A stretch of 49,609 bases of DNA. Origin: Elusimicrobiota bacterium (GTDB lineage Bacteria; Elusimicrobiota; Elusimicrobia; UBA1565). Position 1 is the stretch's first letter; the number at the start of each line of letters is the position of its first letter. Below the pieces are notes generated by a model. That model searched no databases and had not been told where the DNA came from. It was given only the letters and a program-made list of their open reading frames with translations. The stretch lies in contig JACPXC010000035.1 in NCBI GenBank assembly GCA_016196755.1, forward strand, positions 1 to 49,609, read 5' to 3'. Shown here one piece after another: positions 1,789 through 49,609 of the stretch. Both the position numbers and the translations under genes were made by a program.

Positions 1789-1792
1789 GAGG
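1787..1792 (+). promoter_or_regulatory. Shine-Dalgarno AGGAGG for the GTG-started hydratase
   Basis: AGGAGG overlaps the mccB stop codon (TAG at 1786-1788) and sits 4 nt before GTG 1797. This fixes the non-ATG start of the next gene and ties the two genes together translationally. Confidence 0.75.
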
Positions 1793-1796
1793 CCCC

Positions 1797-3493: not shown

Positions 3494-3510
3494 TGTCGGC
3501 TCTTCGTCCA

Positions 3511-3516
3511 AGGAGG
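3511..3516 (+). promoter_or_regulatory. Shine-Dalgarno AGGAGG deciding the reductase start
   Basis: AGGAGG with a 5-nt spacer to ATG 3522. It favours this start over an in-frame ATG at 3480 that would overlap the lyase gene and add 14 residues outside the family pattern. Confidence 0.75.
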
Positions 3517-3521
3517 CAGGC

Positions 3522-7553: not shown

Positions 7554-7590
7554 TTGAACTATTGTATACCACTACTATAAAAAAGTTCAA
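7554..7590 (-). promoter_or_regulatory. Promoter with flanking inverted repeat for the first AAA/DUF4143 gene
   Basis: On the minus strand a TTGAAC -35 (7585-7590) is followed by an 18-nt spacer and a TACAAT -10 (7561-7566), then 7 nt to the ATG at 7551-7553. A 7-bp inverted repeat (TTGAACT/AGTTCAA, 7554-7560 and 7584-7590) spans the promoter: one arm overlaps the -35, the other the expected start site. No Shine-Dalgarno is present, so a leaderless mRNA is likely. The repeat could be an operator. Confidence 0.6.
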
Positions 7591-7623
7591 GATGCCCTCC
7601 GGGATAGCTAAGAAGCGGGGCCG

Positions 7624-8998: not shown

Positions 8999-11900
8999 GT
9001 GCGCGGTCGGAAGGGGGCGTTCGCGTCGGGCTATCGCTTTGTGCGCGCGCGCGCGCGAATTTATATATATAGCGCGGCCCTCCTCCTCCTCGCGGCCCTC
9101 CCCCAGGTCCTCCTAGCCGCCGCCTGCGACACGACCAAGTACGTCAAGAAGGCTGCCGGGGCGGGCGACCACCAGAGCATCCAGGCCGCGGTCGACGCCG
9201 TCCCGAGCACGCTGACCGGCAACTACTGCATCTACGTCGACTCCGATACGTACACGGAGGCGGTCTTCATCACCGGCAAGAATCCCACGCCGGCCTACCG
9301 CCTGACCATCCAGTCCGACCCCGGGATGGTCGGTACCTTCACGCTGATCGTCCCCCCGGGGGGCTCGGGTGCCGGCTTCGAGGTCCAAAACGCCAGCGTG
9401 ACGATCGCGAACTTCATGATCCGCGCCCTCAACACGGTGAACTACGGCGTGGTGACGAGCTCGTTTAACGTGGTGCTCTCCAGCGTGAACGTCGACTCGG
9501 CCAACCCCGGCCGGATCCAGGCCGCGGGCATGTCGCTGGCCGGGCAGAACTTCGTGACCAACTCGAGCGTCACGATCCGGACCCTCGACGTCAGCGCCAT
9601 GTACCTGGAGGGCAGCACGGCGACCACCGTGGCGTTCAGCACGGCGCAGAACAACAGCGCCACCGTCTCCGCGGTCTACCTCGACGGCGCCTCCTCGAAC
9701 ACGTTCACCTCCTTCTTGGCCGACAACCCCCTGGCGGGCAACTCCATAAGCCTCACCAACGGCTCCCATTTCAACTCCGTCATCCGCAGCACCATCTCGG
9801 CCAACGACGCGGACTCCTTCCCGCTCTGGATCAACGCCTCCTCGAGCAACACGATCACGCGCTCCTACATCCGCAACCCGGTGGGCTGGGGCGCCTTCAT
9901 CGACGGCGGTTCCGAGTACAACGAGATAAGCGACAGCACGGCCGCCATCACCAACAACAACGGCCGCGCGGCGGTCTACGTGGGAGGGGCCAGCTACAAC
10001 CGGTTCATCCGCGGCTATTTCGTCAACACCACTGGCCACGGGTTCACGTTCGACGACGCCCACGGCAACTCGATCAGCCAGAGCACGATGACCGGAGGCA
10101 CCGCGTACTTCGCCGGCTTGATCTTCGTCACCGGCAGCTCGAGCAACACGGTGACGGACTCCTACATCCAGAACCTGGCCGGCTACGGGGTCCAGTTCGG
10201 GGGCGGCTCCACGCTCAATACCGTCAGCGGGAGCACGATGGTCTCCAAGGGCAACGCGGGCAACGCGGCCCTCCTCGTCGAGGAGGCGTCCTCGAGCAAC
10301 ACCATCACGGGCTCGATGATCGTCAACCCGTTCGGCCACGGCGCTTTCCTGCTGACGGGGGCCCACTACAACACCATCAGCCTCAGCACGATCACCGCCA
10401 ACCACGCGGACTACAACGCCCTCTACCTCGAGGGCTCGGACGGAAACGCGGTGACGGGCAGCTACCTGCAGAACCAGTTGGGTAAGACCATGCGGCTGGA
10501 CGACTCGCATCATAGCCTCATCTCCGGCAGCACGATCATGACGGACCTCAGCTGGGGCCCCGCGCTCGAGCTCTGGGATTCGGACACCAACACCGTGACC
10601 GGCTCGATGATCAAGAATACCGGCTACGACGGCCTGTGGGTCCAGGGCGGCTCCGTGTTCAACACGGTCAGCCTGAGCACGGTGATCGGCACGGGCTCCG
10701 GGGACACCACCGCCGTCTACCTCGACAATGCGTCGAGTACCACCATCAGCGGGACCTACATGTACAACCCGTTGTCGACCGCGCTGGTGCTCCTGAACCT
10801 CTCGAATTACAACTCCGTCAAGTACAGCACGATGGTCTCCGGCTCCTCGGGCGACTCGGCGCTCTACCTCAACAACGCGGACCGCAACACCATCGCCGAC
10901 TCCATGGTCGTCAACCCCACGGGCTACGGCGCCTACCTGGAGGTCGGCTCGAACTTCAACACCATCATCCGCAGCACGATGGCCACCGCTTCGGCGGGCG
11001 CGAACGTCCCGGGCCTCTATGTGATCGGTTCGGACTCCAACAACATCCTGGACTCCTACGTCACGGGCTCGACGGCGGCCATCATCACGAACTCCGACAG
11101 CGTGGTGTTCGGCGGGTCGACTCTGGTGGGCGCCGATATCCACGGCAACGCCCTGTTCTTCGAAAGCGGCACCCACCTGACGGTGACCACCGGCACTCTC
11201 AAGGGCGGCTCCGGGCGCGGAGCGGCGCTGAGCGTCGCAAACGGTTATCTGGGTGCGGTCAAGGTCACGACCACGACCATCACCGGCGGCGGCTCCGGCG
11301 TCTTCATGGGCACGCCCGGGGGCGGGAGCACGCTGTTTATGTCCTCGATCACGCTCTCCGACCTGTCCCCGGCGGCCACCGGGGTGCGCTTCCGGGGCGG
11401 CGTCATCGTGTCGACCCTGGCCGGGTTCGGCTTCAACGACAGCGACATCGACGTGAACGTCAACGGCGCCCTACTGACGGGGGTCTCGCGCGTGACGATG
11501 CGAACCCCCACGGGCGTTCGCAGCGGGGAGGCCTTCGAGGTCGACGCAGGCAACAAGGTCTATTGGCTGGATCCCCTCCAGCCGCCCGGCACCTGCACCA
11601 CGACGAAGTACGTGAAGAAGGCCGCCGGCGCGGGCGACCATCAGACCATCCAAGACGCCGTCGACTCGGTGCCGGCCACCGTCATCGGAGACTACTGCAT
11701 CTTCGTCGACTCGAGCCCCTACTCGGAGAGCGTCGTCATCGCCAACAAGGACACCCGGAACCTCTACCGCCTCAAGATCCTCTCCGACCCGGCGATGCTC
11801 AGCACCGCCACGCCGATCATCCCGCCGGTCAATTCGACGGCGGCGTTCGTCGTCTGGAACGCCAGCGTGACGATCGGCGGGTTCAACGTCATCTCCACCA

Positions 11901-41700: not shown

Positions 41701-44700
41701 GCGGCACGGTGCTGGCATCCACCGGGACCTCCGGCAGCGCTCTGGCGGCGCGCCGCGGCAGCGTCAACCTGACGCTGACGACCTCGACCTTCTCGGGCGG
41801 CTCCGACGGCGCCGGCATCCTGCTGGAAGAGGGCAACTCGGGCCTGCTCTCCCTGGCCAGCAGCACGGTGAGCGGCGGCCGCTGGGGCGTCTCGATCGCC
41901 ACGATGAACTGCGGCGGGACGTGCGACGGCAACATCTCCATATCGAGCCTGACTTTCTCCGGCCCGCTTACCGCCGGGGCGACGGCGATCTATTTCACGG
42001 GCGGGACATTCGTTTCGACCTTCACGAACGCGGTCTTCGCCGCCGCCGCGCTGGGCGCCAACGTCAGCGGCGCCGCGCTGTCGGCCGGCTCGCGCGTCAC
42101 GATGCGCGCGTCGAGCGGAGAGATGACCGGTCCGGACTACGAGAACGACCCCAACGGCTATGTGGACTGGGCCGGCTACGAGCCCTATCCGGGCTGCGTG
42201 GCGACCAGAAACGTCGGCGCGGGCCAGCCCTATGCGACCATATCCGCGGGCGTGGCGGCCTTGCCCGCGGCCCTGCCCGGCCATGCCTGCGTGGTCGTCC
42301 GCGACGGCGCGACCTACGCCGAGCAGGTGACGGTACGAAACTTCGCCAACGCCGGCTCCTCGATCACGATCCTGGCGGCGCCCGGCTTCGCGCCCGTCGT
42401 CTCTCCGCCCGCCGCCTCCACGGCGGCTTTCCTTATCGCCAACGCCTCGGTCAACGTCCAGGGCATCAGCGTCGTAGCCTCCCAGAACGTCCCCTACGGC
42501 GTCTATGCTTCTTCGACCTATGTCCGGATCAGCAGCGTCAGCGTCAGCACCAGCGGGGCGCTGGGGATCTACACCGCCGGCGTGCGCCTGGGTTCCTGGA
42601 GCGAGCTCAGCTACAGCTCGATCGCGGCAGGGGCCGGGTCCGGTCTCTGGCTGGAAGACAGCACGATGACGGTGGTCTCATACAGCACCGCGATCGGCGC
42701 CGGGTTCGGCAAGCCCGCCCTCAATTTCATCAACTCGGGCGACAATACGGTGACCGATTCCTATATGCAGAACTTGCCCGGGCCGGCCGTCATACTGACG
42801 AATTCCGACCGGATCGCCATCATCGCCAGTACGATGGTCGGCGATACATACGCTTCCGGCGTCGGGGCGCTCTATTTCAGCAACTCGGACAGCGGCACGC
42901 TCACCGGCTGCTATCTCGAGGACCAGGGCGGCGGACCCGCCGTGGGTCTATCCGGCGGCTCCAGCTACAACCGCCTCAGTCTGAGCACCTTTGTCGGCGG
43001 GGGTGCGTTCTCGAGCGCGCTCTATCTCGCTGGGGGAGGCAATAATGCGCTGCAGGATTCGACCATACGCAGCCTGACCGGTTCCGCCGCCCGGCTGGTC
43101 TCCGGTTCCAACAACAACACCATCATCCGCAGCACGATGACCAGCGGCTCGAGCGCCGTCGACCAGATCGCCCTCTACATCAGCGCCTCTTCCTCCAACA
43201 CCGTCCTGGATTCCTACGGCCAGGGCTACACCGGGGTTTCCTTGGCGGACTCTACCGGCACCGTCATCGGGGGGTCGGCGTTCGTGGGTCTAAACGCCGG
43301 CGGCCACGGCGTCGCCCTCGAGGACGGCAACGTGAACTTCACGCTGACGACCGCCACGCTGCGCGGCGGCAGCGCGGGGGCCGGGCTCTCCATCGCTAAA
43401 GACAACGCCGGCCTCATCGTGTTGACTTCCAATACGGTGACGGGCGGCCTCTGGGGCGTTTCGATCGCCACGATGGTCTGCGGCGGGACCTGCAATGGGA
43501 ACGTCTCCATATCGAGCCTGACCTTCTCCGGCGCGCTGAGCGCCGGGGCCACGGCCGTCCACTTCCTTGGCGGGACCTTCGTCTCGACCTTCTCCAACGT
43601 CGCCTTCGACGCCTCCGGCATCGGGGCCAACGTCAACGCCAGCGCGCTCTCGGCCGGCTCGCGCATCACGATGAACACCCCCTCGGGTGTGCGCACCGGC
43701 CCGGCCTACGAGAACGACCCGAACGGCTACGTGGACTGGCCCGGCTACGAGCCCTACCCGGGCTGCGTGATCACCAACAACGTCGGCGTCGGGGCTCCCT
43801 ACGCTACGATCCAGGACGGCGTCGACGCCCTGCCGACGACCCTGACGGGGCATAGCTGCGTGGTCATCCGCGACGGCGCCGCTTACGACGAGCAGGTCAC
43901 GGTCCAGAACTTCGTCAACAACGGCTCCTCGATCACGATCCTGGCCGACCCGGCCTCGGGCTTGAGGCCGCTGATCGCCCCGCCGGCGGCCTCGACGGCC
44001 GCCTTCCACGTGCTCAACGACAGCGTGGCGGTCGTGGGCTTCGACATAAGACCCGCCGTCTCGATCGGCTACGGCGTGTACGCTTCCTCGGCCTACGTCA
44101 TGTTCAGCTCCGTCAACGTGGATTCGGGCGGGAACATCCAGGCGGCGGGCGTCCGCCTGGGGAGCTACAACACGCTGTCCGCCTCGAGCGTCACCGTCCA
44201 ACAGGCCCACGGGATCCTGGTCCCCGGCACCAGCTCCATGACCGTGGTCTCCCTGAGCTCCGCTCAGGCGGCCAGCGTGGTCTTCTACGGGCTCTATCTC
44301 AACGGCGCCGACAGCGCCACGGTCACGGGCTCCTACGTCCAGAACCTCCCGGGCCGCGCCGTCTATCTCGAAGCGGGTGCGAATTTCAACACGGTGGAGC
44401 GGAGCACCCTCGCCGTCAACTCGTCGCTCGACGGCATCAGGATCAACAACAGCAGCGGCAACCTCGTCACCCAGTCCTTCGTGACCAACCCCGGCGGCTA
44501 CGGTATGGGCTTGGGCGCCGACGCCAGCTACAACACCGTCTCCTACAGCACCTTCGTCGGCTTCATCTACGCGTTCTGGGCCGACTACGGCAACGCCTAT
44601 AACACGATCACGGACTCCTACATCCTGGCCTCCAACGGCTACGCGCTCTCGCTGGTCCAATCCTCCAGCAACACGGTCGCGCGCAGCCGCATCGAGAGCC

Positions 44701-47700
44701 TGTCCGGTCATGGCGCCGAGCTGGGCTTCGGCGCCAACTACAACACGATCAGCGAGAGCACGATGGTCGCCAACTCCGCGGGAGGCTCGGCGCTCTACCT
44801 TGGAAACGCCGATAGGAACACGGTGGCGGGGTCCTACGCGCGCAACCTCCTAGGCCACGCCGTCAGCCTGGAGTCCGGCGCGGATTTCAACGCCATCATC
44901 CGCAGCACCCTGACCGCGGGCGCGGCCGGGTTCTACGGGCTCTATGTCGCCGCCTCCTCCTCGAACACGGTCTTGGACTCCTACGTCCAGGGCTCCACGG
45001 CCGCCTACCTCTCGCAGTCGACCGGCACGATCGTGGGCGGCAGCGTCCTGGTCGCCACCAACACCACCGGCAGCGCGCTGGCGCTGGCGCTGGGGAGCGT
45101 AAACCTGAGCGTTACGACCAGCACCCTGCGCGGAGGCACGAGCGGGGCCGGCCTCGTCCTCTTGGCGGGCAGCAACGGCTCGGTCACGTTGAGCAGCGGC
45201 ACCTTGTCGGGCGGCCGCTACGGCCTCTCGATCGCGACGATGGCCTGCGGCGCCTGCGACGGGAACCTGGCGGTTTCCAACCTGACCGTCTCGGCGCTGA
45301 GCCCGGGTGCTACGGCGGTCCACTTCGAGGGCGGCATTTTCGTCTCGACCTTCGTCTACGCGGCGTTTGACGACGCCGGCATCGGGGCCAACGTCAGCGG
45401 CGCCGCCCTCTCTGCCGGCTCGCGGATCACGATGAGCAACGCCGCGGGCGTCCGGACGGGCCCGTCCTACGAGAACGACCCGAACGGCTACGTGGACTGG
45501 CCCGGCTACGAACCCTACCCGGGCTGCGCGCTCACCAACAACGTCGGCGCCGGCAAACCCTACGCCACCATCCAGGCCGCGGTGGACGCCCTCCCGACTG
45601 CCCTGACCGGGCACAGCTGCGTGGTCATCCGCGACGGGGCTACCTACGACGAGCAGGTCACGGTCCGGAACTTCGTCAACAACGGCTCCTCGATCACGAT
45701 CCTCGCGGCGCCAGAATTTGCGCCCGTTGTCTCCCCGCCGGCGGCCTCGACGGCGGCTTTCCTCATCGCCAACGCCTCGGTCAACGTCTCGGGGATCAGC
45801 GTGGTGGCGTCGCAGAACGTCCCCTACGGCGTCTACGCTTCTTCGGCCTATGTCCGGATCAGCAGCGTCGGCGTCAGCACCAGCGGGGCGCTGGGGATCT
45901 ACACCGCCGGCGTGCGCTTGAGCTCCTGGAGCGCCGTGAGCTACAGCACGGTGTCGGTCTGGAACGCCCACGGCGTCTGGCTCGACGGCAGCACGATGAC
46001 GTTCGTGTCCTACAGCACGGCGGTGTCGAGGGGCGGCGGCTCCGCGCTCATGCTGTCCGGGGCGGTCGGCAACACGGTCTCCGGCTCCTACATCGAGAAT
46101 ACGTCGCGCTTTGCGGCGGAACTGCTGGGGTCCTCATACAACACGATCAGCCAGAGCACGATAACTTCCGGCGCGCTGGCTTTCGAGGCCCTCGCGATCT
46201 TTGACGGCGATTGGAACACGGTGACGGGCTCGCATATCCAGAACCCGGAGGGCAACGCGGCGACCTTGGGAAGTGGATCCGACAACAACACGATCAGCCA
46301 GAGCACTGTCGTCTCCAACGGCACGGGCTTCGTGGCGCTCTGGCTCAATTCCGCCGACAGCAACACGGTGACGGGCTGCTACGTCCAGAACCTCGCGGGC
46401 CTAGGCCTTTATCTGAAATCAGGATCCGACTACAACAGCGTCAGCCAGAGCACCATGGTCGGAGCGTCCAACAACGCCGCGCTGCGCATCGAGGACAGCG
46501 ACCTCAACTCGGTGACGGCTTCCTATATCTCCAACACCGGCGCTTATGGCGTCTATATGATCTCCGGGTCGGATAACAACAGCCTCGCTCAGAGCACCGT
46601 CGTAGCCCAGGGGGCGGCCGGCAACGCCCTCTACATCAACTTCTCCGACAGCAACACCGTGACCGATTCCTACATCCAGAACCTGGCGGGCAGCGGCGTC
46701 ATCATCATCACCGCCGCCGACTACAACGCCATAAGCCTCAGCACCATGGTTTCCAACGCGGCGGGCTACCGGGCGCTGTGGGTCTCCAACAGCAGCGTGC
46801 GCAACACGGTCACGGGCTCCGTCATGCGCAACCTCCTGGGCGAGGCCGTCCGCCTCGAGACCAACGCCGACCACAACAGCATCAGCCTGAGCACGATGGT
46901 GTCCAACACGGCCTCCTATCAGGCGCTCTACATCGGGAATTCCTCCTCAAACGTCGTCTTGGGCTCCTACGTCCAGGGCTCGACGGCCGTCTTCGTCACG
47001 GGCTCGACGGGCACGGTCATCGGCGGCTCGGTCCTGGTCGCCACCCATACGGGCGGAACCGCGCTGGCGCTGGTTAAGGGGAGCGTCAACCTGACCCTGG
47101 CCACGAGCACCCTGCGCGGCGGCTCGGGCGGCGCCGGGCTCCTCATGAGCCCGGGCAACTCGGGCCTGGTGGCCCTGAGCAGCAGTTCGGTCTCCGGCGG
47201 ACGCTTCGCCCTCTCCATCGCGACGATGAACTGCGGCGCCTGCGCCGGGAATCTTTCGGTCTCAAGCCTGGTGTTCACGGGCGATCTGGCCTCCGGCGCC
47301 ACGGCCGTGCACTTCACGGGCGGCATCTTCGTCTCCACCTTCACCAACGCTGCCTTCGACGGCGCGTCCATCGGCGCCAACGTCAGCGGCGCCGCCCTCT
47401 CGGCCGGCTCGCGGATCACGATGCGCACGCCCTCGGGCCCGCGCACCGGCCCGGCCTACGAGAACGACCCGAGCGGCTACGTCGATTGGCCGGGCTTCGA
47501 GCCCTACCCGGGCTGCGTGGTCACCAACAACGTCGGCGCGGGCGCGCAGTACGCCGCGATCCAGCCCGCCGTCGACGCGTTGCCGGCCGCTTTGACCGGG
47601 CACAGCTGCGTCGTCATCCGCGACGGCGCGACATACCCTGAGCAGGTCACGGTGCAAAACTTCATCAACGCCGGCTCGTCGATCACGATATTCGCGGCGC

Positions 47701-49609
47701 CGGGCTTTGCGCCCGTCGTCTCCCCGCCCGCCGCCTCGACGGCGGCCTTCCTCATCGCCAACGCCTCGGTCAACGTCCAAGGGATCAGCGTCGTCGCCTC
47801 CCAAAACGTGCCCTACGGCGTGTGGGCGTCCTCTTCGTATGTGACGCTCTCAAGCGTCGCGGTCAGCACCAGCGGGAGCCGCGGCATCTATACGGCCGGC
47901 GTGCGTTTAAGCTCGTGGAGCGCGGTCTCCACCAGCTCGGTGACGGTCTGGGGCGCGCACGGCTTCTGGCTCGACGGCTCGACGATGACCACCGTCTCCT
48001 ACAGCAGCGCGCAGGTCAAGAGCGGCTCATTTTACCCGTTCTACCTCCAGAACGCGTCCGGCAACGCCTTCACGGTCGTCTTCGCGAGCAACAGCCACGC
48101 CTCGGGCTACGGGTTCTATGCCCTGAACTCGGACTCGAACACCGTGACGGAGAGCTATCTCTGGGGCGGCCAGAGAGGAGCCTACCTCCAGACCGGCTCG
48201 GACTACAACACCATCAGCCTGAGCACCATGATCGGCAACAGCCAATACGGGCTCACTGCCTCCGGCGCCGACTCGAACACGGTGACGGCGAGCTATCTCT
48301 GGGGCGGCCAGCAGGGGGCCGTCCTGACGACCGGCTCGGACGACAACGCCATCAGCCTGAGCACCATGATCGGCAACAGCCAATACGGACTCCTTGTGCA
48401 AGACTCGGAGACGAACACCGTGACGGAGAGCTATCTCTGGGGAGGCTCTTACGGGGCTGAGCTCAACACCGGCGCGGACTACAACACGATCAGCCTGAGC
48501 ACCATGATCGGCAATACCTTCTACGCGCTCTATGCCTATGGCGCCGACTCGAACACCGTGACGGAGAGCTATCTCCGGGGCGGCCTAGGCGGGGCCCTCC
48601 TCAACACCGGCGCGGACTACAACGCGATCAGCCTGAGCACCATGATCGGCGATGGCTTCAACGGGCTCTATGCCTTCGGCGCCGAGTGGAACACCGTGAC
48701 GGAGAGCTATCTATGGGGAGGCACCCGCGGGGCCTACCTCGACGCCGGCGCGGACCACAACGCGATCAGCCTGAGCACCATGATCGGCAACGGCGGCTAC
48801 GGGCTCTACGCCGTGGGCGCCGACTCGAACACCGTGACGGAGAGCTATCTCCGGGGCGGCACTCGCGGGGCCTCCCTGAACACCGGCGCGGACTACAACG
48901 CCATCAGCCTTAGCACCATGGTCAGCGACAGCGCGGGCAACCCGGCCCTTTACATCTTCCAGGCCTCCTCCAACACGGTCCTCAACTCGTATGTCCGGGG
49001 CTCGACGGCCGCCCTCATCTCGGGTTCGACGGGAACTCTCATCGGCGGCACCGTCTTCATCGCGACGAACACCGCAGGCGCCGCGCTGGCGCTCTCCAAC
49101 GGCAGCGTGAACCTGACGCTTGCCACGAGCACGCTCGACGCCCCATCGCTGGGCCGCGGCCTGGCGCTCGGCTCGGGCAACGCCGGCGTGGTGAGCCTGG
49201 GCAGCGTCACCTTCACCGGCGCGGGGCGCGGCATCGAGATCTCCACGCAAGGGGCCAACTTCAGCCTGGCGGTGGACTCCGTCACCTTCCGCGGCCTCGC
49301 CTCGGGGGCGACGGCCATCCACTTCTTGGGCGGCACCTTCGTCTCCACCATCAATTTGGCCGGCTTCGAGGACGGCCTGCTGGGCGCCAACGTCTCGGGC
49401 GCTGCCCTGGACTTGGCCTCGCGCATCACCATGCGCAGCCATTCGGGTCCCAGGACGGGCCCCGCTTTCGAGAACGACCCCAACTCGCTGGTGGACTGGG
49501 CCGGTTTCGAGCCTTATCCGGGCTGCGCGCTCACCAGCAACGTCGGCGCGGGCCAGCCCTATGCCACCATATCCGCGGGCGTGGCGGCCCTGCCCGCGAC
49601 CTTGCCCGG
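18621..49609 (+). CDS. Giant beta-helix repeat protein, downstream part (open to window edge)
   Basis: This frame is open from 18582 to the end of the window, and from ATG 18621 it encodes at least 10,329 residues with no stop. All module heads from 20706 to 49524 fall in this one frame. It completes module 5, contains modules 6-17 and begins module 18. It has no signal peptide or ribosome site of its own, so it is best read as the rest of the gene that starts at 8999, separated by the lesion at 18551-18620. Coils of about 24 residues with N-T-(V/I)-(T/S) turns and Asn/Ser/Thr ladders fit a right-handed parallel beta-helix. Folded continuously, such a protein would be a filament hundreds of nanometres long (inference from 24 residues per roughly 0.48-nm coil). 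Likely location is the cell surface or outside the cell. The C-terminal anchor or secretion domain lies beyond the window. Confidence 0.85.
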   Translation, partial: MVTIGSDGAALYIEGSDSNTVTGSYIQNLTGDGAAMVSGADYNSISRSTMVSNVGGDAALYINASESNTVTGSYIENLGGYAAYLSNGADFNTVSQSTMVSNAAGLYALYLNGVDDNAVAGSYMLNLAGTAARLETGSERNAISLSTMVSAAAGKFGLDVFAAASNTVTGSYLQNLAGDAVLLHYGADYNTISLSTMVGGSSSYRALYILSADSNTVTGSLMLNPAGDAVSLDTGSEYNTIALSTMVSSAASYRALLITDSDRNAVAGSYLQNLGGDAAMLISGADENSIEESRLVASGDGRVALYVIGSDSNSVTGSHLENLIGHGARLEGGAENNVISQSTMVSDAAPHYAFYLYGTDSNTVTGSFMRNLTGTAARLESGSERNTISLSTMIAAASGKLALYLFGADSNTVTGSYLENAAGPAVILASNAEYNAILLSTMVSGSTNDKALYLNESDHNTVADSIMRNTAGSGAHLDTGSDFNAVIRSTMSSASVTAGRYGLHIVAASSNTILDSYVQGSTAAFIDRSTGTAIGGSVFAATAVSGGALFVYGGVNLTLASSTLSGGPAGLALGIGANNAGRFDISTITVVGGAFGVQVGAPLPAMTLAMTSVTLADQEPGATGLRYLGGVHVATVTAMAFADSGLAVNVDGAGLSGGSRVTMREDAGGRTGPPYETDPSGLVDWPDYVPPPAGVCATTRYVKKIPGAGDHTGIQAAVDAIPATVYGDYCIHVDSSSYSESVVIANKNTQNIYRIKILSDPAMLSTATPIIPPVMSTAAFVIWNASVTIGGFNVRSTNPVTFGVYASSGWVAISSVNVDSGGNIGYAGVKLSSWSLIENSSITVQNAHGIWLDAAVTRSIVRVSTALADTLSTTRHALFLEGADTNTVTGSFIQNLSGFAARLDSAADYNAITQSTMVSNAASNAALYIFGSDSNTVTGSYMQNLAGYGARLQSGADSNTIAQSTMVSRAASVSALYMDVADSNTVTGSYIENLAGFGAYINTNSDYNAIILSTMVSNQAGFYALRLGAADYNAVTGSYMQNLAGDAASLTNGSDFNTMSQSTAVSNAANRAALHLLNAASNTFSGSMFQNLAGTAAFLGAGAYSNNLVLSTMASAASGGYALYALNADTNVVDASFLYNAAGHAVMLDVGADRTTIMRSTAVSEGEAYSALYVTSSGSGTFVNSYFQNLAGDGVRLSTGSDFNTISYSTMVSMTHQRFALWLTAAGGNSVTDSFISNLGGHGALFESYSSLNSISRSTIVVSGAGADRALFLKYSDSNTVTGSYLQNLAGRGILIDSSAHNTISQSTVATNSTLKAIQVNGSSHNVITGSYIRNLDRLALSFENNSAFNTVSQSTVVSNSSLDDTLIIKNSDSNTITGSYIHNAAGTALRLEQGADQNTISQSTMVSNASAYSALSIDASAGNTVTGSWMQNLAGDAASLTNGSASNLISQSEMVSNTTGKNALVISDSDSNIVTQSTIDNGAGTALFLQGMSNTVARSTVTSRFEAEPAVRISSAQDTWIVDSYIQGSTAAWVSASTRTTFGGSVFVATHAFGYGLLVVAGGEDLTVASSTLLGGRFAAGISIQPGFGGLIRISTNSLLDAAVGFGASFLRSDARLWVTSNTVTFAEESFQTWGVVTEGLTGGATIQNNAITLTRSRGTGAYPANIAVYDSQGFVITHNRLSNPGAAQANFIILEYSNLDFAKSEYNDIHSTGTGLTYGRLVRYVNGTSYVTGRNSIYASSHTAADFYFVEIDAASQTGLYGDYNNYFSSNSTRQALWGAAVCQLPYWTGAGCPGAEPNSTTNHPQWAAMGYDFHPRSAGGRWTPGGFVADAATSLTIDAGDPADDFSDETAPNGGRVNQGSYGNTVEASRSIDFCAELVSAGAGPADWSAPESWVPVLTPTACNAVTIQAGHQITVDTLEATASSTTIEGRLSFSRAAPSSFTVVGGSITVTPTGHLDMGTEASPIALGMTAHLVLAKGSGAARYGLTIENGGAFTVRGATKTPYGYATETIPEDATTLKVALASTENWGAGDSITIGPTDRAVNGTGPSSVWRATITAVSGADPNVVTFAPALDTARVLTATSPIVVSNLTRNVLVRSSGTDTSSGGDTAYVSNLARNATSFNLAYGEFAHIGTAENVTAAIVFEAGSLGSISSSSFREGYNGVHIYASSNITVFANTFYSNSNYGISLWDGSNNAISANNSHANAKYGIRLDGASDNNVLSGNNSYGNANRGFSLGNASNNNILNSNSAYANSSYGIHLFNASDYNTLSGNNSYANINRGLSLEDSSNNTLSANNAYGNDNVGVFLIDASSNILSANKFHANASRGIALTDASYNTLSGNYIYGNASYAILLNNSIDNAILGGALGYDAAGNASENAITEIFFNNTGAENLVLKSVRINPANGFNATGLNRAGNHILSYAQDYASGTLRVYGDYTLSGATWTLQHDVRVSTSLFTTPKLMRGIGGGHGAAVCSTSDADAVSQLVTLEFNGADWTVTGSSTGAMGTIAAGSCQAIGGGQASVNITGLTPQTGDRLDFILIAASPAADIQKRLLFGPAAAGFNGGKSKLTIAPDAGIVFQGAEGAHTLIDRLNDASTYYTFVASGAFTARFSSFTNMDFGGIQLAGDKGVTLSSSTFDALGFAAGTNAYITARDLTSSGVFDNVRFGVSRSSHGYDSATNVRVENGDSNLDWFFTTASSGLWGEDHDDELGASNKVRWYLAEALPPYCASGFNVRKDGTQDYTAIGPALDALTKDLTGNACVVVRDAETYAEQVTVEGFTNNGFRVYVEAVGGLAPTVAPPTASTAAFDLKNASVSIVNFAVRPTVDAVSYGVLASSANIVISSVNVDSAGNIRVAGMRLASYVAVTNSSVTVQAAYGMDFLAGSSMSAISYSSAQANSSVFAALYVNNASSHTFDVFLASNPAGEAAFLTGGAAYNAISRSTMSASSAGGIALWVSGSHNNTVTASFIYNRGGADALRLDAASSFNVIAQSTMTASSVGDLAFFAIGASSNTVTGSTMRNTVGTAARLDSASDYNAIVNSTLTANAAGYRGLIIAGSDNNTVSASYIQNLAGDGAYLDSGSAYNSISQSTMVSNGTNHHGLYLNGADSNTVTGSYIQGLSAGGVMLEAGADFNAIAQSTMLAGGAGFQALYIDASDSNTVTGSYMQNLSGEAVNLTGADRNIVSQSTMVSNAVGSYALQLSGADENSVLGSYIRNPFGPGASLVSGSDLNAVSQSTISTNGTASALYLAASDSNTVTASYLQAAAGFGASIDSGADYNTISQSTMVSSAGAYSALYVASQRNSVTGSFMASLAGYAASLEAGANHNAISLSTMVSGGAFPALNLVSAASNTVSGSYIQGSTAVVISRSTGTLIGGSVLVATSTTGSALYFQAGVNLTVASSTLRGGTAQRALGIAAGNAGRLELSTLTIVGGGRGLELGAPLPGADLAVTSVTLAGAEPAGTGVHFLGGVVVATLTAAAFDDAGIGVNVDGAALSAGSRVTMREDAGTKTGPSYENDPSGYVDWPDFTPAPPGTCGTTRTVKKTPGAGDHASIQAAVDAIPATLYGDYCIHVDSSPYSESVVVANKDTQTLYRIKILSDPAMVSTATPIIPPVKSTAAFVVWNASVTIGGFNVISTNSVTYGVLASSMNIVISSVNVDSGGNIVTAGMQLGSHNTVSDSSVTAVSAYGFSLNGSSATSISYSTAQAVSTFALFVSAASSNTFTQNVLSGTYGGYFQTGSNYNTIQRSSFTGSAVGLNFFSGTSYNTVTQSRMSSPDGRGMAFASGADYNDVSLSTITSANGTNAALFIWSASSNSVSQSYIFNSAGHAAWLDNSAAYNSISQSTMVSNGPGYAALRLSNADRTAVTGSLMRSMPGYGAYLDNGSDHNELTQSTMVSNAASYSALYIGASASNTVTGSYAANLAGDGAYLASGADDNAISQSTVVSVNSYALWVVDADRNVISGSYILGQEAFGLVLDAGADDNTVSQSTLTVFGGYALYLENADANEVTGSYIESQDDWAVVMSLSDDNLISQSTMVSIGGYALDVYGSDRNTVTGSYIEGRGGFGAYVESGSDLNAIIQSTVVATGGEALFFSASDSNTVTGSYIGGLVEHSANLTNGADYNTISQSTIVASDADYKALHIFASDRNTVMDSSIRHLAGDAVYLSTGADHNTIIRSSLTSLAAMAGRYGLFLLQNSSNTVLDSYIQGSTAAFFKGSTGAVIGGSVLVATHTTGAAFFMHGGVNLTLTTSTLRGGTAGVGVGLGAGNAGLLEVTTVTVVGGGPGVQVGAPGTGMTLFLSSITLADQSPGSTGLRFLGGVHVTTVTAMAFNDSGISVNVDGAALSAGSRVTMRSDAGPKTGIPHENDPSGYVDWPDYVVPEGVCVTTRYVKKEAGAGDHQSIQAAVDAIPAVVYGDYCIFVDSSPYSESVVIANKDTQTLYRLKILSAPAMVSTATPVIPPVNSTAAFVVWNASVTLGGFNIISTNSVTYGVLASSMNIVISSVNVDSGGNVKVAGMLLGSHNTVSRSSVTVQAAHGMSLPASSSMTAISYSTAQADSTSFFALYLNGSDSNTVTGSYIKNLGDGAYLVSGADYNSISQSTMLANASGRRALYINGSDSNTVTGSYLQNPGTGYGAHLLNADYNSISQSTMIVSGSARALYLDGSVSNTVTGSYIQNLAGDGASLAFGADYNTISQSTMVSNASGADALVLRTADNNTVTGSYIQNLAGDGVYLYNTSGYNSISRSTMVSNASGGYALHILTDRNTVADSYIQNLAGYGASLGSIADYNTIIRSTMTSASATANRYALYIAGGSSNTVLDSYIQGSTAVFISGSTGTVIGGSVLVATNTTGSALYFQAGVNLTVASSTLRGGTARRALGIAAGNAGRLELSTITVVGGGRGLELGAPLPGADLAVTSVTLAGAEPGATGVHFLGGVVVATLTAAAFDDSGLAVNVDGAALSAGSRVTMREDAGPKTGPAYESDPSGYVDWPDFTPAPPGTCGTTRYVKKTPGAGDHASIQAAVDAIPAVVYGDYCIFVDSSPYSESVVIANKDTQTLYRIKILSDPVMVGTATPIIPPVMSTAAFVVWNASVTIGSFNIISTNSVSYGVLASSANVFISSVNVDSGGNVKVAGMQLGSHNTLSKSSITVQAAHGISLPASSSMTIVSYSTAQANSTAFRALYFDGSDSNTVTGSYIQNLAGDGAYLNTGSEFNVISQSTMVSNTSSYRGLYLNSADNNTVTGSYVQNLAGHAARFETGSDYNTVSQSTILSNAANYLALYLFGADSNTVTGSYIQNLAGDGLYLFSGSDFNTISQSTIVSNAGGGYCALYLGQSDRNTVAGSYIQNLASYGACLGNGADRNTISLSTMISNSVIFQALNLVAADSNTVTGSYIQNLDGDGARLEGGSDYNTIIRSTMTSASATAGRYGLHILASSSNTVLDSYVQGSTAAFLTGSTGTVIGGSMLVATNTTGSALYFQAGVNLTVASSTLRGGTAQRALGIAAGNAGRLELSTLTVVGGGLGLELGAFLPGADLAVTSVTLAGAEPGATGVHFLGGVVVATLTAAAFNDNAIGVNVDGSALSAGSRVTMREDAGAKTGPSYESDPSGYVDWPDFTPAPPGTCETTRTVKKTPGAGDHASIQAAVDAIPANVYGDYCIFVDSSPYSESVVIANKDTQTLYRIKILSDPAMLSTATPIIPPVKSTAAFVIWNASVTIGGFNVISTNSVSYGVLASSANIVVSSVNVDSGGKVGYGGVKLAAWSVLENSSITVQNAHGIWLEAAAAGAQVRVSTALAGSASAYALFIAGADSAAVADSYFQNAAGHGAYLDSGSDYNAISRSTVVSNAVGYYAFYLTNADSNTVTASYIENLSGYGAYLNTGSDYNAISQSTMVSNAASYRALYLNAADSNTVTGSYIQNLAGYGAYLNTGSEYNTISQSTMVSNALSYSALYLNGVDSNTLAGSYMQNLSGYGAFLDNGSDYNIISQSTMVSNAAGGYALYLGYADSNTVTGSYMQNLSGYGAYLNTGSDYNTISQSTMVSNYSSYRALYLTAADSNTVTGSYVQNLAGDAAYLANGSDYNTINSNTVTGSYMQNLAGDGVNLGSGSDYNTISQSTMVGNGALRSALYLGASDSNTVTGSYMQNLSGYGASLASGSEYNTISQSTFVTNNASYAAFYLNNSDSNTVAGSRIENLTGDGAYLVNSSDYNTISQSTMVSNAASYRALYLASDSNTVTGSYMQNLAGDAAYLNTGSDNNTIIRSTMTSAAAGRYALYILASSSNTVLDSYVQGSTAAFITGSTGTVIGGSVLVATNTTGSALYLQAGVNLTVASSTLRGGTAQRALGIAAGNAGRLEISTITVVGGGRGLELGAPLPGGGLAVTSVTLAGAEPGATGVHFLGGVVVATLTAAAFDASALSVNVDGAALDLASRITMNAYYGARGGPVYENDPNSLVDWISEPYPGCVVVRNVGAGQDYPTISAGVAALPTTLPGHACVVIRDGATYAEQVTLQNFTNAGSSITIFAAPGFAPVVSPPAASTAAFLIANASVNVQGIGIVASQNVPYGVYASSSYVALSSVSVSTSGSAGIYTAGVRLGSWGAVSYSSVTVWGAHGFWLDGSTMTTVSYSSAQVKSGSFYPFYLQNAAGNTFTLIFSSNSHVSGFGFFASNSDSNTVTESYLWGGSRGVYLYTGSDYNAIGLSTMIGKSGYAFSAYTADLNTLTGSYMQGGQRGAFFDNGSDYNAIGQSTMVSGSSAYALYLDASASNTVTGSYIQSSAGYGVYLNGGSDYNAISLSTMVANQRALHVRQSVGNTVAGSYIESPNGRGAWLDTGADYNTISQSTMMAVSLVALYVGGAESNTVTGCYVQSSNAAAADLNSGANFNVISQSTMVASGAAGRALDVTGDRNTVSGSYMQNLAGYGAYLDNVANYNTISQSTMVSNASGYRALYLAGADSNTVTASYIQNLAGHGAHIDTGSDNNTIRQSTMVSAAANYQALYIVAADSNTILDSYIQGSTAASISGSTGTVIGGSVLVATHTTGAALTMAGGSVNLTLTTSTLRGGPSGPALNFGAGNAGVVTLTTNTVTGGRWGVVIATMACGACAGNVSISSLTFSGPLASGATAIEFLGGTFTSTFAAVGFADSGLAVNVNAGALNAASRITMNNPSGVRTGPAFETDPNALVDWVGYEPFPGCSVTNDVGAGASYATIQAAVDALPTTLTGHSCVVIRDGATYAEQVTVRNFTNNGSSITILGDPSVAQPVIAPPAASTAAFLIANASVNIQGIGIVASQNVPYGVYASSSHVALSSVGVSTTGALGIYTAGVRLSSWSAVSYSSVTVWGAHGIWLDGSKMTVVSYSTTVANAAAFSALYLVGADSNTVTGSYIQNPAGYGAYLNSGSDYNTISQSTMVSNSASYQALLLESADSNTVTGSYMQNPSGYGAYLNIGSDYNTISQSTMVSNAASSPGLSLVSADGNTVTGSYIQNLAGYGAYLNGSDYNSISQSTIVSNAAAYASLYLEGADSNTVTGSFMQNLAGYGAWLATGADYNTISQSTMVSSAAIYYALLIDDADRNTVTGSYAQNLSGQSAVLNAGSDHNLIAQSTMVANSANRVALFLSGADSNTVTGSYMQGGGYGAYLDLGSDHNTIIGSTMAAVAGTNSQVGLQIWNSSSTTVLDSYVQGPTAAHVTGSTDTVFGGTVLASTGTSGSALAARRGSVNLTLTTSTFSGGSDGAGILLEEGNSGLLSLASSTVSGGRWGVSIATMNCGGTCDGNISISSLTFSGPLTAGATAIYFTGGTFVSTFTNAVFAAAALGANVSGAALSAGSRVTMRASSGEMTGPDYENDPNGYVDWAGYEPYPGCVATRNVGAGQPYATISAGVAALPAALPGHACVVVRDGATYAEQVTVRNFANAGSSITILAAPGFAPVVSPPAASTAAFLIANASVNVQGISVVASQNVPYGVYASSTYVRISSVSVSTSGALGIYTAGVRLGSWSELSYSSIAAGAGSGLWLEDSTMTVVSYSTAIGAGFGKPALNFINSGDNTVTDSYMQNLPGPAVILTNSDRIAIIASTMVGDTYASGVGALYFSNSDSGTLTGCYLEDQGGGPAVGLSGGSSYNRLSLSTFVGGGAFSSALYLAGGGNNALQDSTIRSLTGSAARLVSGSNNNTIIRSTMTSGSSAVDQIALYISASSSNTVLDSYGQGYTGVSLADSTGTVIGGSAFVGLNAGGHGVALEDGNVNFTLTTATLRGGSAGAGLSIAKDNAGLIVLTSNTVTGGLWGVSIATMVCGGTCNGNVSISSLTFSGALSAGATAVHFLGGTFVSTFSNVAFDASGIGANVNASALSAGSRITMNTPSGVRTGPAYENDPNGYVDWPGYEPYPGCVITNNVGVGAPYATIQDGVDALPTTLTGHSCVVIRDGAAYDEQVTVQNFVNNGSSITILADPASGLRPLIAPPAASTAAFHVLNDSVAVVGFDIRPAVSIGYGVYASSAYVMFSSVNVDSGGNIQAAGVRLGSYNTLSASSVTVQQAHGILVPGTSSMTVVSLSSAQAASVVFYGLYLNGADSATVTGSYVQNLPGRAVYLEAGANFNTVERSTLAVNSSLDGIRINNSSGNLVTQSFVTNPGGYGMGLGADASYNTVSYSTFVGFIYAFWADYGNAYNTITDSYILASNGYALSLVQSSSNTVARSRIESLSGHGAELGFGANYNTISESTMVANSAGGSALYLGNADRNTVAGSYARNLLGHAVSLESGADFNAIIRSTLTAGAAGFYGLYVAASSSNTVLDSYVQGSTAAYLSQSTGTIVGGSVLVATNTTGSALALALGSVNLSVTTSTLRGGTSGAGLVLLAGSNGSVTLSSGTLSGGRYGLSIATMACGACDGNLAVSNLTVSALSPGATAVHFEGGIFVSTFVYAAFDDAGIGANVSGAALSAGSRITMSNAAGVRTGPSYENDPNGYVDWPGYEPYPGCALTNNVGAGKPYATIQAAVDALPTALTGHSCVVIRDGATYDEQVTVRNFVNNGSSITILAAPEFAPVVSPPAASTAAFLIANASVNVSGISVVASQNVPYGVYASSAYVRISSVGVSTSGALGIYTAGVRLSSWSAVSYSTVSVWNAHGVWLDGSTMTFVSYSTAVSRGGGSALMLSGAVGNTVSGSYIENTSRFAAELLGSSYNTISQSTITSGALAFEALAIFDGDWNTVTGSHIQNPEGNAATLGSGSDNNTISQSTVVSNGTGFVALWLNSADSNTVTGCYVQNLAGLGLYLKSGSDYNSVSQSTMVGASNNAALRIEDSDLNSVTASYISNTGAYGVYMISGSDNNSLAQSTVVAQGAAGNALYINFSDSNTVTDSYIQNLAGSGVIIITAADYNAISLSTMVSNAAGYRALWVSNSSVRNTVTGSVMRNLLGEAVRLETNADHNSISLSTMVSNTASYQALYIGNSSSNVVLGSYVQGSTAVFVTGSTGTVIGGSVLVATHTGGTALALVKGSVNLTLATSTLRGGSGGAGLLMSPGNSGLVALSSSSVSGGRFALSIATMNCGACAGNLSVSSLVFTGDLASGATAVHFTGGIFVSTFTNAAFDGASIGANVSGAALSAGSRITMRTPSGPRTGPAYENDPSGYVDWPGFEPYPGCVVTNNVGAGAQYAAIQPAVDALPAALTGHSCVVIRDGATYPEQVTVQNFINAGSSITIFAAPGFAPVVSPPAASTAAFLIANASVNVQGISVVASQNVPYGVWASSSYVTLSSVAVSTSGSRGIYTAGVRLSSWSAVSTSSVTVWGAHGFWLDGSTMTTVSYSSAQVKSGSFYPFYLQNASGNAFTVVFASNSHASGYGFYALNSDSNTVTESYLWGGQRGAYLQTGSDYNTISLSTMIGNSQYGLTASGADSNTVTASYLWGGQQGAVLTTGSDDNAISLSTMIGNSQYGLLVQDSETNTVTESYLWGGSYGAELNTGADYNTISLSTMIGNTFYALYAYGADSNTVTESYLRGGLGGALLNTGADYNAISLSTMIGDGFNGLYAFGAEWNTVTESYLWGGTRGAYLDAGADHNAISLSTMIGNGGYGLYAVGADSNTVTESYLRGGTRGASLNTGADYNAISLSTMVSDSAGNPALYIFQASSNTVLNSYVRGSTAALISGSTGTLIGGTVFIATNTAGAALALSNGSVNLTLATSTLDAPSLGRGLALGSGNAGVVSLGSVTFTGAGRGIEISTQGANFSLAVDSVTFRGLASGATAIHFLGGTFVSTINLAGFEDGLLGANVSGAALDLASRITMRSHSGPRTGPAFENDPNSLVDWAGFEPYPGCALTSNVGAGQPYATISAGVAALPATLP
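23510..26810 (+). other. Non-repetitive insert with G8-like and NosD/PbH1-like segments
   Basis: This part of the giant frame has no NTVTGSY coils. Its first part (to 24.25 kb) resembles the end of a polymorphic beta-helix protein, with DPADDFSDETAPNGGRVNQG-type text common near the end of such proteins. A segment starting W-x-APESWVP..NAVTIQAGHQITVD then EGRLSFS (24.29-24.45 kb) resembles the G8 domain. From 25.08 to 25.72 kb a series of 21-24-residue repeats (G-I-x-L-x-x-ASNN-x-LSGNNSYGN) matches NosD/PbH1 coils. The last kilobase is unassigned beta-rich sequence. Domain names are by eye only. Confidence 0.6.
25084..25720 (+). repeat. NosD-like PbH1 coil array
   Basis: About nine coils of the type YGI-x-L-(x)2-AS-x-N-x-LS-x-NNSYGNA are rich in Asn and aromatic residues. 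They are distinct in sequence from the Ser/Thr-rich 47-49-residue pairs elsewhere in the locus, and they are the only such array in the window. Confidence 0.75.
26811..29234 (+). repeat. Beta-helix module 7 (type B head, type A cap)
   Basis: This 808-codon module has a head of type B (NACVVVRDAETYAEQVTV), the first in the locus and otherwise found only from module 12 on. Its post-head block (SYGVLASSANIVISSVNVDS) and cap near 28680 are type A. About nine coil pairs lie between. It is a head/cap hybrid and evidence for recombination between the two families. Confidence 0.85.
29235..31778 (+). repeat. Beta-helix module 8 (type A head)
   Basis: This 848-codon module has about ten coil pairs with varied turns (VTGSLMR, VISGSYIL, EVTGSYIE). 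The cap near 31220 differs from the SALYFQAG type of its neighbours and resembles that of module 2 (GGAFYM / GAAFFM, ATHTTG). Confidence 0.85.
31779..33629 (+). repeat. Beta-helix module 9 (type A head)
   Basis: This 617-codon module has about five coil pairs close to consensus and a cap near 33075. The cap reads SALYFQAGVNLTVASSTLRGG with ARRALGIAAGNAG, almost the same DNA as in modules 3, 7, 10 and 11. Confidence 0.85.
33630..35492 (+). repeat. Beta-helix module 10 (type A head)
   Basis: This 621-codon module has about five coil pairs and a cap near 34935. In size, coil number and most of its DNA it mirrors module 9 immediately upstream, so the pair looks like a tandem whole-module duplication. 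Confidence 0.85.
35493..38009 (+). repeat. Beta-helix module 11 (type A head, mixed linker)
   Basis: This 839-codon module has about ten coil pairs, one of them a hybrid (see 36861-36890), and a SALYLQAG-type cap near 37460. Its linker switches to the type B form (YENDPNSLVDWISEPYPGC), marking the transition to the type B modules that follow. Confidence 0.85.
36861..36890 (+). repeat. Hybrid coil junction from an in-frame deletion
   Basis: The text runs YNTINSNTVTGSY: the usual second coil (SQSTMVSN...ALYLNAAD) is absent and two first-type coils are joined directly. The frame is kept. This is a clear example of unequal recombination between units, in contrast to the frame-breaking event at 18.6 kb. 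Confidence 0.8.
38010..40193 (+). repeat. Beta-helix module 12 (type B head)
   Basis: This 728-codon module has a head of type B with GHACVVIRDGATYAEQVTLQNF and ASQNVPYGVYASSS. About eight coil pairs follow, the first ones of the SYLWGG variety shared with module 17. The cap near 39630 gains a CGAC motif (MACGACAGN). Confidence 0.85.
40194..42194 (+). repeat. Beta-helix module 13 (type B head)
   Basis: This 667-codon module has about six coil pairs, close in DNA to the type A consensus (SNTVTGSYIQN), and a type B cap near 41625 with CGGTC (MNCGGTCDGN). The coils and the head/cap thus have different nearest relatives. Confidence 0.85.
42195..43763 (+). repeat. Beta-helix module 14 (type B head)
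   Basis: This is the shortest complete module (523 codons), with only about three degenerate coil pairs between the head and the CGGTC-containing cap near 43195. It shows the minimum the architecture tolerates. Confidence 0.85.
43764..45524 (+). repeat. Beta-helix module 15 (type B head)
   Basis: This 587-codon module has a type B head but a type A-like post-head segment (YVMFSSVNVDSGGNIQAAGVRLGS). About five divergent coil pairs follow, with a cap near 44965 containing CGAC. It is another head/post-head hybrid. Confidence 0.85.
45525..47513 (+). repeat. Beta-helix module 16 (type B head)
   Basis: This 663-codon module has the head C-x30-C. About six coil pairs, one with VTGCYVQ that adds a free Cys, precede a cap near 46945 with CGAC (MNCGACAGN). 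Confidence 0.85.
47514..49523 (+). repeat. Beta-helix module 17 (type B head, SYLWGG coils)
   Basis: This 670-codon module has about seven coil pairs, most with the turn NTVTESYL(W/R)GG and partner NTISLSTMIGN, a variant otherwise seen only at the start of the module 12 array. The cap near 48965 lacks the CxxC found in modules 12-16. Confidence 0.85.
49524..49609 (+). repeat. Start of beta-helix module 18 (type B head, cut by window edge)
   Basis: The first Cys and NVGAGQPYATISAGVAALPA of a type B head are present, closest to module 13. The sequence ends before the second Cys, so the locus continues beyond the window. Confidence 0.8.

What the first reader, a model, noticed from the sequence alone, without database searches (positions are those of the whole stretch)
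8999..49609. Giant modular beta-helix locus with over 13,500 codons in the window
Two adjacent frames of 3184 and at least 10,329 codons carry the same repeat system, and the second is still open at the window edge. Even alone, the second frame would be among the very large bacterial ORFs. A signal peptide at the start and the non-enzymatic, Ser/Thr/Asn/Gly-rich content suggest a surface filament, adhesin or sheath. I know of no described system with exactly this head-coil-cap-linker architecture, but I cannot search.
Basis: partly seen in the sequence, partly recalled or inferred. Interest (0 to 1): 0.9.

Follow-up and report, generated by a model that had tools for sequence, protein, structure and literature searches.

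The report
Giant beta-helix surface protein of Elusimicrobia
An uncultured Elusimicrobia bacterium carries one of the larger bacterial genes on record, roughly 19,000 codons over two contigs, for a secreted chain of about 24 beta-helix rods whose tail domain and two small neighbouring genes resemble, in layout but not in sequence, a cell-surface display system known from Gram-positive bacteria.

Summary
The two frames (3184 and 10,329 codons) are one gene. The second starts mid-module without head, signal peptide or ribosome site, just after a Tyr-to-TAG change and a frameshift within 70 bases (true lesion or assembly error; not decided). The window is a whole contig of an Elusimicrobia genome. 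I found the missing C-terminus on another contig (C64, 5483 codons, natural stop). Its edge overlaps the window edge (282 bases, 94%), giving about 18,900 codons, 1.9 MDa and 24 modules, or more if modules are missing between the contigs. AlphaFold2 predicts a right-handed beta-helix (24-25 residues per coil) with a flexible linker before the next module. Close module pairs evolve under purifying selection. The module head occurs in 37 of 57 genomes of the order, often in ORFs of 4000-12,000 codons. New here: the protein ends in a ~150-residue domain found at the C-terminus of other large Elusimicrobia proteins. Next to it lie a small secreted protein homologous to that domain and a ~300-residue secreted partner with no Pfam family. 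This layout mirrors WxL clusters, without detectable sequence homology. Best reading: a very long, non-enzymatic surface fibre/adhesin displayed by a WxL-like three-gene system. Function is inferred.

The parts
8999..9124 (+). GTG start, basic n-region and hydrophobic signal-peptide-like stretch (VRGRKGAFAS...SAALLLLAALPQVLLAAA/C)
   Evidence: read from the translation; no signal-peptide program was available
9125..17431 (+). modules 1-4 (head, beta-helix coils, cap, linker), K-type heads
   Evidence: Pfam Beta_helix/NosD/Pectinesterase
17432..20705 (+). module 5, interrupted: head and first coils in ORF 1, remaining coils and cap in ORF 2
18551..18621 (+). lesion: TAG (18551-18553) in place of a Tyr codon, then a frameshift with loss of about 15-17 codons; joins ORF 1 and ORF 2 as one gene
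   Evidence: three-frame translation
20706..26810 (+). module 6, enlarged (2035 aa): beta-helix, G8 domain (about 24318-24632) and a second, NosD-type beta-helix (about 25044-25730)
   Evidence: Pfam G8 E 3.8e-8, NosD 1.8e-26, Beta_helix 1.4e-29; TIGR03804 7e-18
26811..38009 (+). modules 7-11, K-type heads (module 7 hybrid)
33630..35492 (+). module 10, modelled together with the next head
   Evidence: AlphaFold2 mean pLDDT 88.6, pTM 0.74; Foldseek hits are beta-helix proteins
38010..49523 (+). modules 12-17, G-type heads
49328..49609 (+). contig edge (end of cap, linker and first 28 residues of the next head) that dovetails with the open edge of contig C64 (L009, reverse strand), which carries 7 more modules, a LamG3 domain, two FN3-like domains, the C-terminal domain and the stop
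   Evidence: 282 nt end to end, 94% identity; LamG3 E 2.3e-23

Best explanation
One gene, about 18,900 codons or more, encodes a Sec-exported surface fibre. Each of about 24 modules has a disulphide-capped head (two invariant cysteines), a right-handed beta-helix rod of many 24-25-residue coils, a conserved cap and a short flexible linker, so the mature chain is a string of rods that would be roughly 300 nm long if extended. G8 and LamG3 insertions, and the large exposed Ser/Thr/Asn faces, make it a multivalent binder of polysaccharide or particle surfaces rather than an enzyme. The ~150-residue C-terminal domain (CTD) holds the chain at the cell surface, together with two proteins encoded just downstream: a small secreted protein homologous to the CTD, and a ~300-residue two-domain secreted partner. 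The division of labour would be like large WxL / small WxL / WxLIP in Gram-positive bacteria. Shown here: gene continuity up to the lesion and contig gap, predicted fold, module system, CTD position, gene neighbourhood, selection on modules. Inferred: export, disulphides, length, binding role, and docking by CTD and partner.
For: Modules and heads: (invariant C1/C35). Fold. C-terminus found. The C-terminal 350 aa are 43-51% identical to the ends of other huge ORFs with the same heads in six genomes. In every locus examined the CTD match ends within about 0-22 residues, mostly under 12, of a stop codon. Giant gene, small CTD-like protein and partner lie next to each other in G000, G025, G028, G032, G048 and G055. 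CTD and small protein are homologous (hhalign probability 94%, E 1e-7). 30 of 49 partner loci in 57 genomes have a CTD-type hit within 3 kb, 29 on the same strand, against about 0.003 expected per locus; without the 11 seed loci, 19 of 38. Purifying selection: the closest module pairs have dN/dS 0.14-0.31. No motifs of pectinesterase, C5-epimerase, PL1 or GH28 active sites. Host is diderm (Omp85). Phylum from named relatives.
Against: The gene as assembled is broken at 18551-18621, and no reads were available. The C66-C64 join is not proven; the overlap is 94%, not identical. The C-terminal model is weak (mean pLDDT 58.6), so the CTD fold is uncertain. The partner's two-Ig nature is read from sequence only (no Pfam or PDB match). 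The export route across the outer membrane is unknown: SprA_N and usher were not found in G000. The nearest structural matches include polysaccharide lyases and epimerases, so an enzymatic role is not excluded.
Confidence: 0.62

Rival explanations
1. A giant secreted carbohydrate-active weapon: some modules are polysaccharide lyases or epimerases that degrade the wall or slime of prey or plants, as proposed for giant proteins of related phyla.
For: Foldseek top hits are PL6 alginate lyases and mannuronan epimerases; the head profile matches pectinesterase N-termini (Pfam; PDB 1xg2 E 1.9e-4); LamG3 and G8 domains; giant PVC-group proteins have been read as predation weapons (PMC12057145, PMC10066038).
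Against: No catalytic motifs of pectinesterase, C5-epimerase, PL1 or GH28. The pectinesterase match covers only its first ~50 residues. Invariant residues of the coils are structural (Gly, Ser, Thr, Asn, hydrophobic); charged invariants sit in head, cap and linker.
Confidence: 0.17
2. A decaying or mis-assembled locus: the array is a pseudogene or a chimera of several shorter genes joined by repeats.
For: TAG plus frameshift within 70 bases; contig break inside a near-identical repeat.
Against: No other stop or frameshift in the rest of the array on the two contigs; dN/dS 0.14-0.31 between the closest modules; relatives carry long intact arrays, e.g. frames of 7410 and 12,133 codons; one signal peptide and one CTD for the whole array.
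Confidence: 0.13
3. A structural coat or sheath: the rods pack side by side into an S-layer-like or fibrous cell coat without a specific ligand.
For: Repetitive, acidic, lysine-poor composition; a giant coat protein is proposed for Velamenicoccus (PMC10066038).
Against: Only 37 of 57 genomes of the order carry the heads and copy number varies from about 1 to about 24 modules, odd for an essential coat; binding-type insertions G8 and LamG3.
Confidence: 0.08

Closest known systems
Huge proteins (>5000 aa) of Elusimicrobiota, Omnitrophota and related phyla (PMC11573180, PMC10066038, PMC12057145)
   Same: size class, phylum, secreted repeat-rich adhesin-like content, LamG3 and beta-helix domains
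   Different: this one has a regular head-coil-cap-linker module repeated about 24 times, and a conserved CTD with two partner genes that I did not find described in the held papers
WxL protein clusters of Gram-positive bacteria (PMC10599100)
   Same: three-part layout: large protein with C-terminal domain, small protein made of that domain alone, adjacent secreted partner of two (here inferred) Ig-like domains; an Enterococcus gilvus WxL cluster fetched here even has a pectate-lyase-like adhesin
   Different: no detectable homology (hhalign 2.2% partner/WxLIP, 0.1% CTD/WxL); no conserved W-x-L pair; partner has no C-terminal membrane helix; host has an outer membrane
Right-handed beta-helix adhesins and enzymes (PfbA, Ag43, pertactin, PL6 alginate lyases, tailspikes)
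   Same: predicted fold
   Different: about 24 rods in one chain; no autotransporter barrel; no enzyme motif found
Pectinesterase (PF01095)
   Same: the head resembles its N-terminal ~50 residues
   Different: active-site region absent

Membership tests
Huge (>5000 aa) secreted repeat protein of Elusimicrobiota | length above 5000 residues in one frame | tested here: met
   10,329-codon uninterrupted frame; 5483 more on C64
Huge (>5000 aa) secreted repeat protein of Elusimicrobiota | phylum | tested here: met
   named relatives of the head are Elusimicrobia MAGs
Right-handed parallel beta-helix | coil repeat and fold | tested here: met
   24/25/49 periodicity, Pfam PF13229, AlphaFold2 pLDDT 88.6, Foldseek; no experimental structure
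Pectinesterase PF01095 (enzyme) | catalytic GxVDFIFG-type segment | tested here: not met
   motif absent; match limited to N-terminal ~50 residues
WxL cluster | large protein with a C-terminal domain that also occurs alone in a small secreted protein | tested here: met
   CTD/small protein hhalign E 1e-7; position at stop codon
WxL cluster | adjacent secreted two-Ig partner | tested here: inconclusive
   partner adjacent; Ig fold not modelled
WxL cluster | sequence homology to WxL and WxLIP (DUF916/DUF3324) | tested here: not met
   hhalign probabilities 2.2%, 0.1%, 0.07%; no Pfam WxL hit (one CTD-family member hits WxLIP_PGBD at E 0.005 only)
WxL cluster | two conserved Trp-x-Leu motifs; C-terminal transmembrane helix on the partner | tested here: not met
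   two invariant Trp but no conserved W-x-L; partner ends without hydrophobic helix
Type IX secretion cargo | TIGR04183/TIGR04131 sorting domain and SprA in the genome | tested here: not met
   no NCBIfam match of the C-terminus; SprA_N absent in G000
Two-partner secretion (TpsA) or autotransporter | N-terminal TPS domain or C-terminal beta-barrel | tested here: not met
   no such Pfam domain in ORF 1 or in the C-terminal 2020 aa
Chaperone-usher system | usher PF00577 | tested here: not met
   none in G000

The most novel reading that the evidence does not exclude
Elusimicrobiota have a phylum-wide, undescribed surface-display system for giant proteins: a shared C-terminal docking domain, a small protein made of that domain, and a two-domain partner. 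It would have evolved independently of (or be extremely diverged from) the Gram-positive WxL/WxLIP system, and it would carry beta-helix fibres of megadalton size.
Probability: 0.4. Interest if true: 0.75.

Novelty: new variant of a known kind. Interest (0 to 1): 0.58.

Why it matters
How bacteria hold megadalton proteins at their surface is largely unknown, and the giant proteins of Elusimicrobiota and Omnitrophota have almost no annotated handles. A C-terminal domain shared by many such proteins, with two conserved neighbour genes, gives a testable handle: bind the three parts together, and use the domain to list the phylum's giant surface proteins. The parallel with WxL clusters would be a case of the same surface-display layout in monoderm and diderm bacteria.

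Tried and rejected
Independent second gene at 18621: rejected (starts mid-module, no signal peptide or Shine-Dalgarno). Pectinesterase or other beta-helix enzyme: motif search negative. T9SS, chaperone-usher, TPS, autotransporter: tested, not supported. Homology of CTD/partner to WxL/WxLIP: sequences fetched from Enterococcus plasmids (found with a 38-residue probe that I composed around the NQIDK...YFDLK motif given in PMC10599100), profile comparison negative. Partner vs PDB and Pfam: nothing. CTD vs PDB: only marginal hits. Structure of the C-terminal 350 aa: low confidence; Foldseek hits are FN3 tandems, used only for the two FN3-like domains. First alignment of all 24 heads was too divergent for the genome-contig scan; a K-type subset worked. 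Counting heads with the head HMM over-counts because its last coils match other coils, so motif-based counts were used.

Full report
WHAT WAS CHECKED. The window is the whole of contig C66 of a 4.59-Mb genome in 67 contigs, so the array ends at an assembly break. Chance frames at 65% GC reach 861 aa here, far below the claimed sizes. Pfam recognises right-handed beta-helix repeats (PF13229, 16 stretches), NosD repeats and the N-terminus of pectinesterase in ORF 1. Residue classes autocorrelate at 24, 25 and 49 residues: pairs of 24- and 25-residue coils.

ONE GENE, NOT TWO. ORF 1 ends inside its fifth module. Its stop is a TAG where the repeat has a Tyr codon. The repeat continues in frame past it for about 20 codons, then a frameshift with loss of about 15-17 codons leads into ORF 2. 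ORF 2 begins at an internal Met of the same module, without head, signal peptide or Shine-Dalgarno. Whether the two changes are a real null allele or an assembly fault cannot be decided without reads.

THE MISSING C-TERMINUS. A search of the own genome with the last 4.6 kb found the same repeats in contig C64, mostly at 65-75% identity. C64 (17,640 bp, L009) carries on its reverse strand a 5483-codon frame that is open at the contig edge and ends at a natural stop. The last 282 bases of C66 align end to end with the first 282 bases of that strand at 94%. The first ~80 bases of the overlap differ too much for simple strain variation, while the last ~165 are nearly identical. Either the edges truly overlap, or they are two near-identical copies of one repeat with at least one module lost between. 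The joined frame is about 18,900 codons and 1.9 MDa (masses), or more. All listed head matches in this genome lie on these two contigs.

ANATOMY. Signal-peptide-like N-terminus (42 residues), then modules that start with a ~190-residue head containing two invariant cysteines (alignment of 24 heads). Two head types occur: K (VKKxxGAGDH) and G (VGAGxxY). Most modules are 520-850 residues. Module 6 (2035 aa) contains a G8 domain and a second, NosD-type beta-helix; on C64 a LamG3 domain with adjoining unassigned sequence interrupts the module row. After the last module come two FN3-like domains and a ~150-residue C-terminal domain (CTD). AlphaFold2 on module 10 plus the next head gives mean pLDDT 88.6; coils mostly score above 95, and confidence is lowest at the module boundary (residues ~590-620), so the chain looks like rods joined by short flexible linkers. 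Foldseek against the PDB returns PL6 lyases, epimerases, tailspikes, Ag43, pertactin and PfbA, all beta-helices. About 650 coils at 0.48 nm would make a chain of about 300 nm (inference).

EVOLUTION. The closest head and cap pairs have dN/dS 0.14-0.31, so the modules are under purifying selection as protein. More distant pairs are uninformative because synonymous changes saturate in this GC-rich gene. Nearest neighbours of heads and of caps are often different, non-adjacent modules (caps of A2, B1, B3, B4 and C2 are 90-92% identical while their heads differ); head and cap distances correlate only at r 0.40. The array is therefore a mosaic, not a simple tandem duplication series.

DISTRIBUTION. 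Heads occur in 37 of 57 genomes of the order and in 45 of 295 sampled across the phylum at E 1e-10. Named relatives are Elusimicrobia MAGs. Frames holding heads reach 7410 (5'-truncated), 7510 and 12,133 codons. CTD-ended relatives that are complete on their contigs are shorter, with about 1 to 4 modules, so this gene is the extreme of an order-wide family.

THE C-TERMINAL DOMAIN AND ITS NEIGHBOURS. The last 350 residues are 43-51% identical to the ends of other huge head-bearing proteins in G048, G025, G055, G032, G034 and G028. Wherever examined, the CTD sits at the very C-terminus. Directly downstream of the giant gene lie a ~300-residue secreted protein (here L009:286-1191, reverse) and a small secreted protein (here L009:2-286, cut by the contig end). 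In G025, G032, G048 and G055 the order of the two is reversed; G028 has the same order as here. The small protein is homologous to the CTD (hhalign probability 94%, E 1e-7). Of 49 partner loci in 57 genomes, 30 have a CTD-type hit within 3 kb (29 same strand). Excluding the 11 loci from which the profile was built, it is 19 of 38, against about 0.003 expected per locus; several of the rest lie at contig ends. The partner is found in 69 of 295 genomes across the phylum. Neither protein belongs to a Pfam family, the CTD family has no NCBIfam match, and neither has a convincing PDB relative.

WHAT IT WORKS LIKE. WxL clusters have a large protein with a C-terminal WxL domain, a small protein that is only that domain, and a partner (WxLIP) of two Ig-like domains thought to hold WxL on the wall (PMC10599100). 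The layout here is the same. I fetched WxL and WxLIP proteins from Enterococcus plasmids and compared profiles: no homology. The dual W-x-L motif and the partner's membrane helix are missing too. It may work like a WxL cluster, but it is not a member. The host is diderm (Omp85), so the CTD and its partner would act at the outer surface or in the periplasm; how the chain crosses the outer membrane is unknown. T9SS and usher are not found in this genome.

FUNCTION. A very long multivalent adhesin or surface fibre is the best reading (0.62). An enzyme or weapon (0.17) is not excluded, because beta-helix enzymes are the nearest folds, but the sequence lacks the motifs tested. A broken or mis-assembled locus (0.13) is limited to one spot and one contig join.

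KNOWN CONTEXT. Elusimicrobiota are known to be rich in proteins above 5000 aa (PMC11573180); 39,678 aa is reported in Omnitrophota (PMC10066038) and up to 85,800 aa in the wider group (PMC12057145). Size alone is therefore not new. The regular module, the CTD and the three-gene layout are not described in the papers I could search; preprints and most subscription journals were not searchable.

Noticed in passing
window 6342-8826 (-): Two neighbouring AAA_14/DUF4143 ATPases lie just upstream of the giant gene, on the opposite strand.
   Followed up: no
window 169-4910 (+): Carboxyltransferase, enoyl-CoA hydratase and HMGL-like genes: looks like a branched-chain acyl-CoA degradation cluster.
   Followed up: no
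G000 contigs C33, C43, C3: More very large ORFs in the same genome (6006, 4641 and 2673 codons); C43 and C3 carry the same C-terminal domain.
   Followed up: partly
L047/L048 (G005:C40): A 12,133-codon frame with a few heads and FN3-like repeats in a relative of the same family.
   Followed up: partly
one search hits, e.g. G058, G074, G206, G219, G249, G260: The ~300-aa partner also occurs as ~170-aa half-length proteins and as matches inside 770-860-codon frames in other Elusimicrobia families, so its domains are mobile.
   Followed up: no
G013, G016, G024, G025: SprA_N-like ~1860-codon frames (possible type IX secretion) occur in some relatives but not in this family.
   Followed up: no
L074 (Enterococcus gilvus plasmid pCR1A): A Gram-positive WxL cluster also contains a pectate-lyase-like adhesive protein, another pairing of such a domain with this kind of display system.
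   Followed up: no
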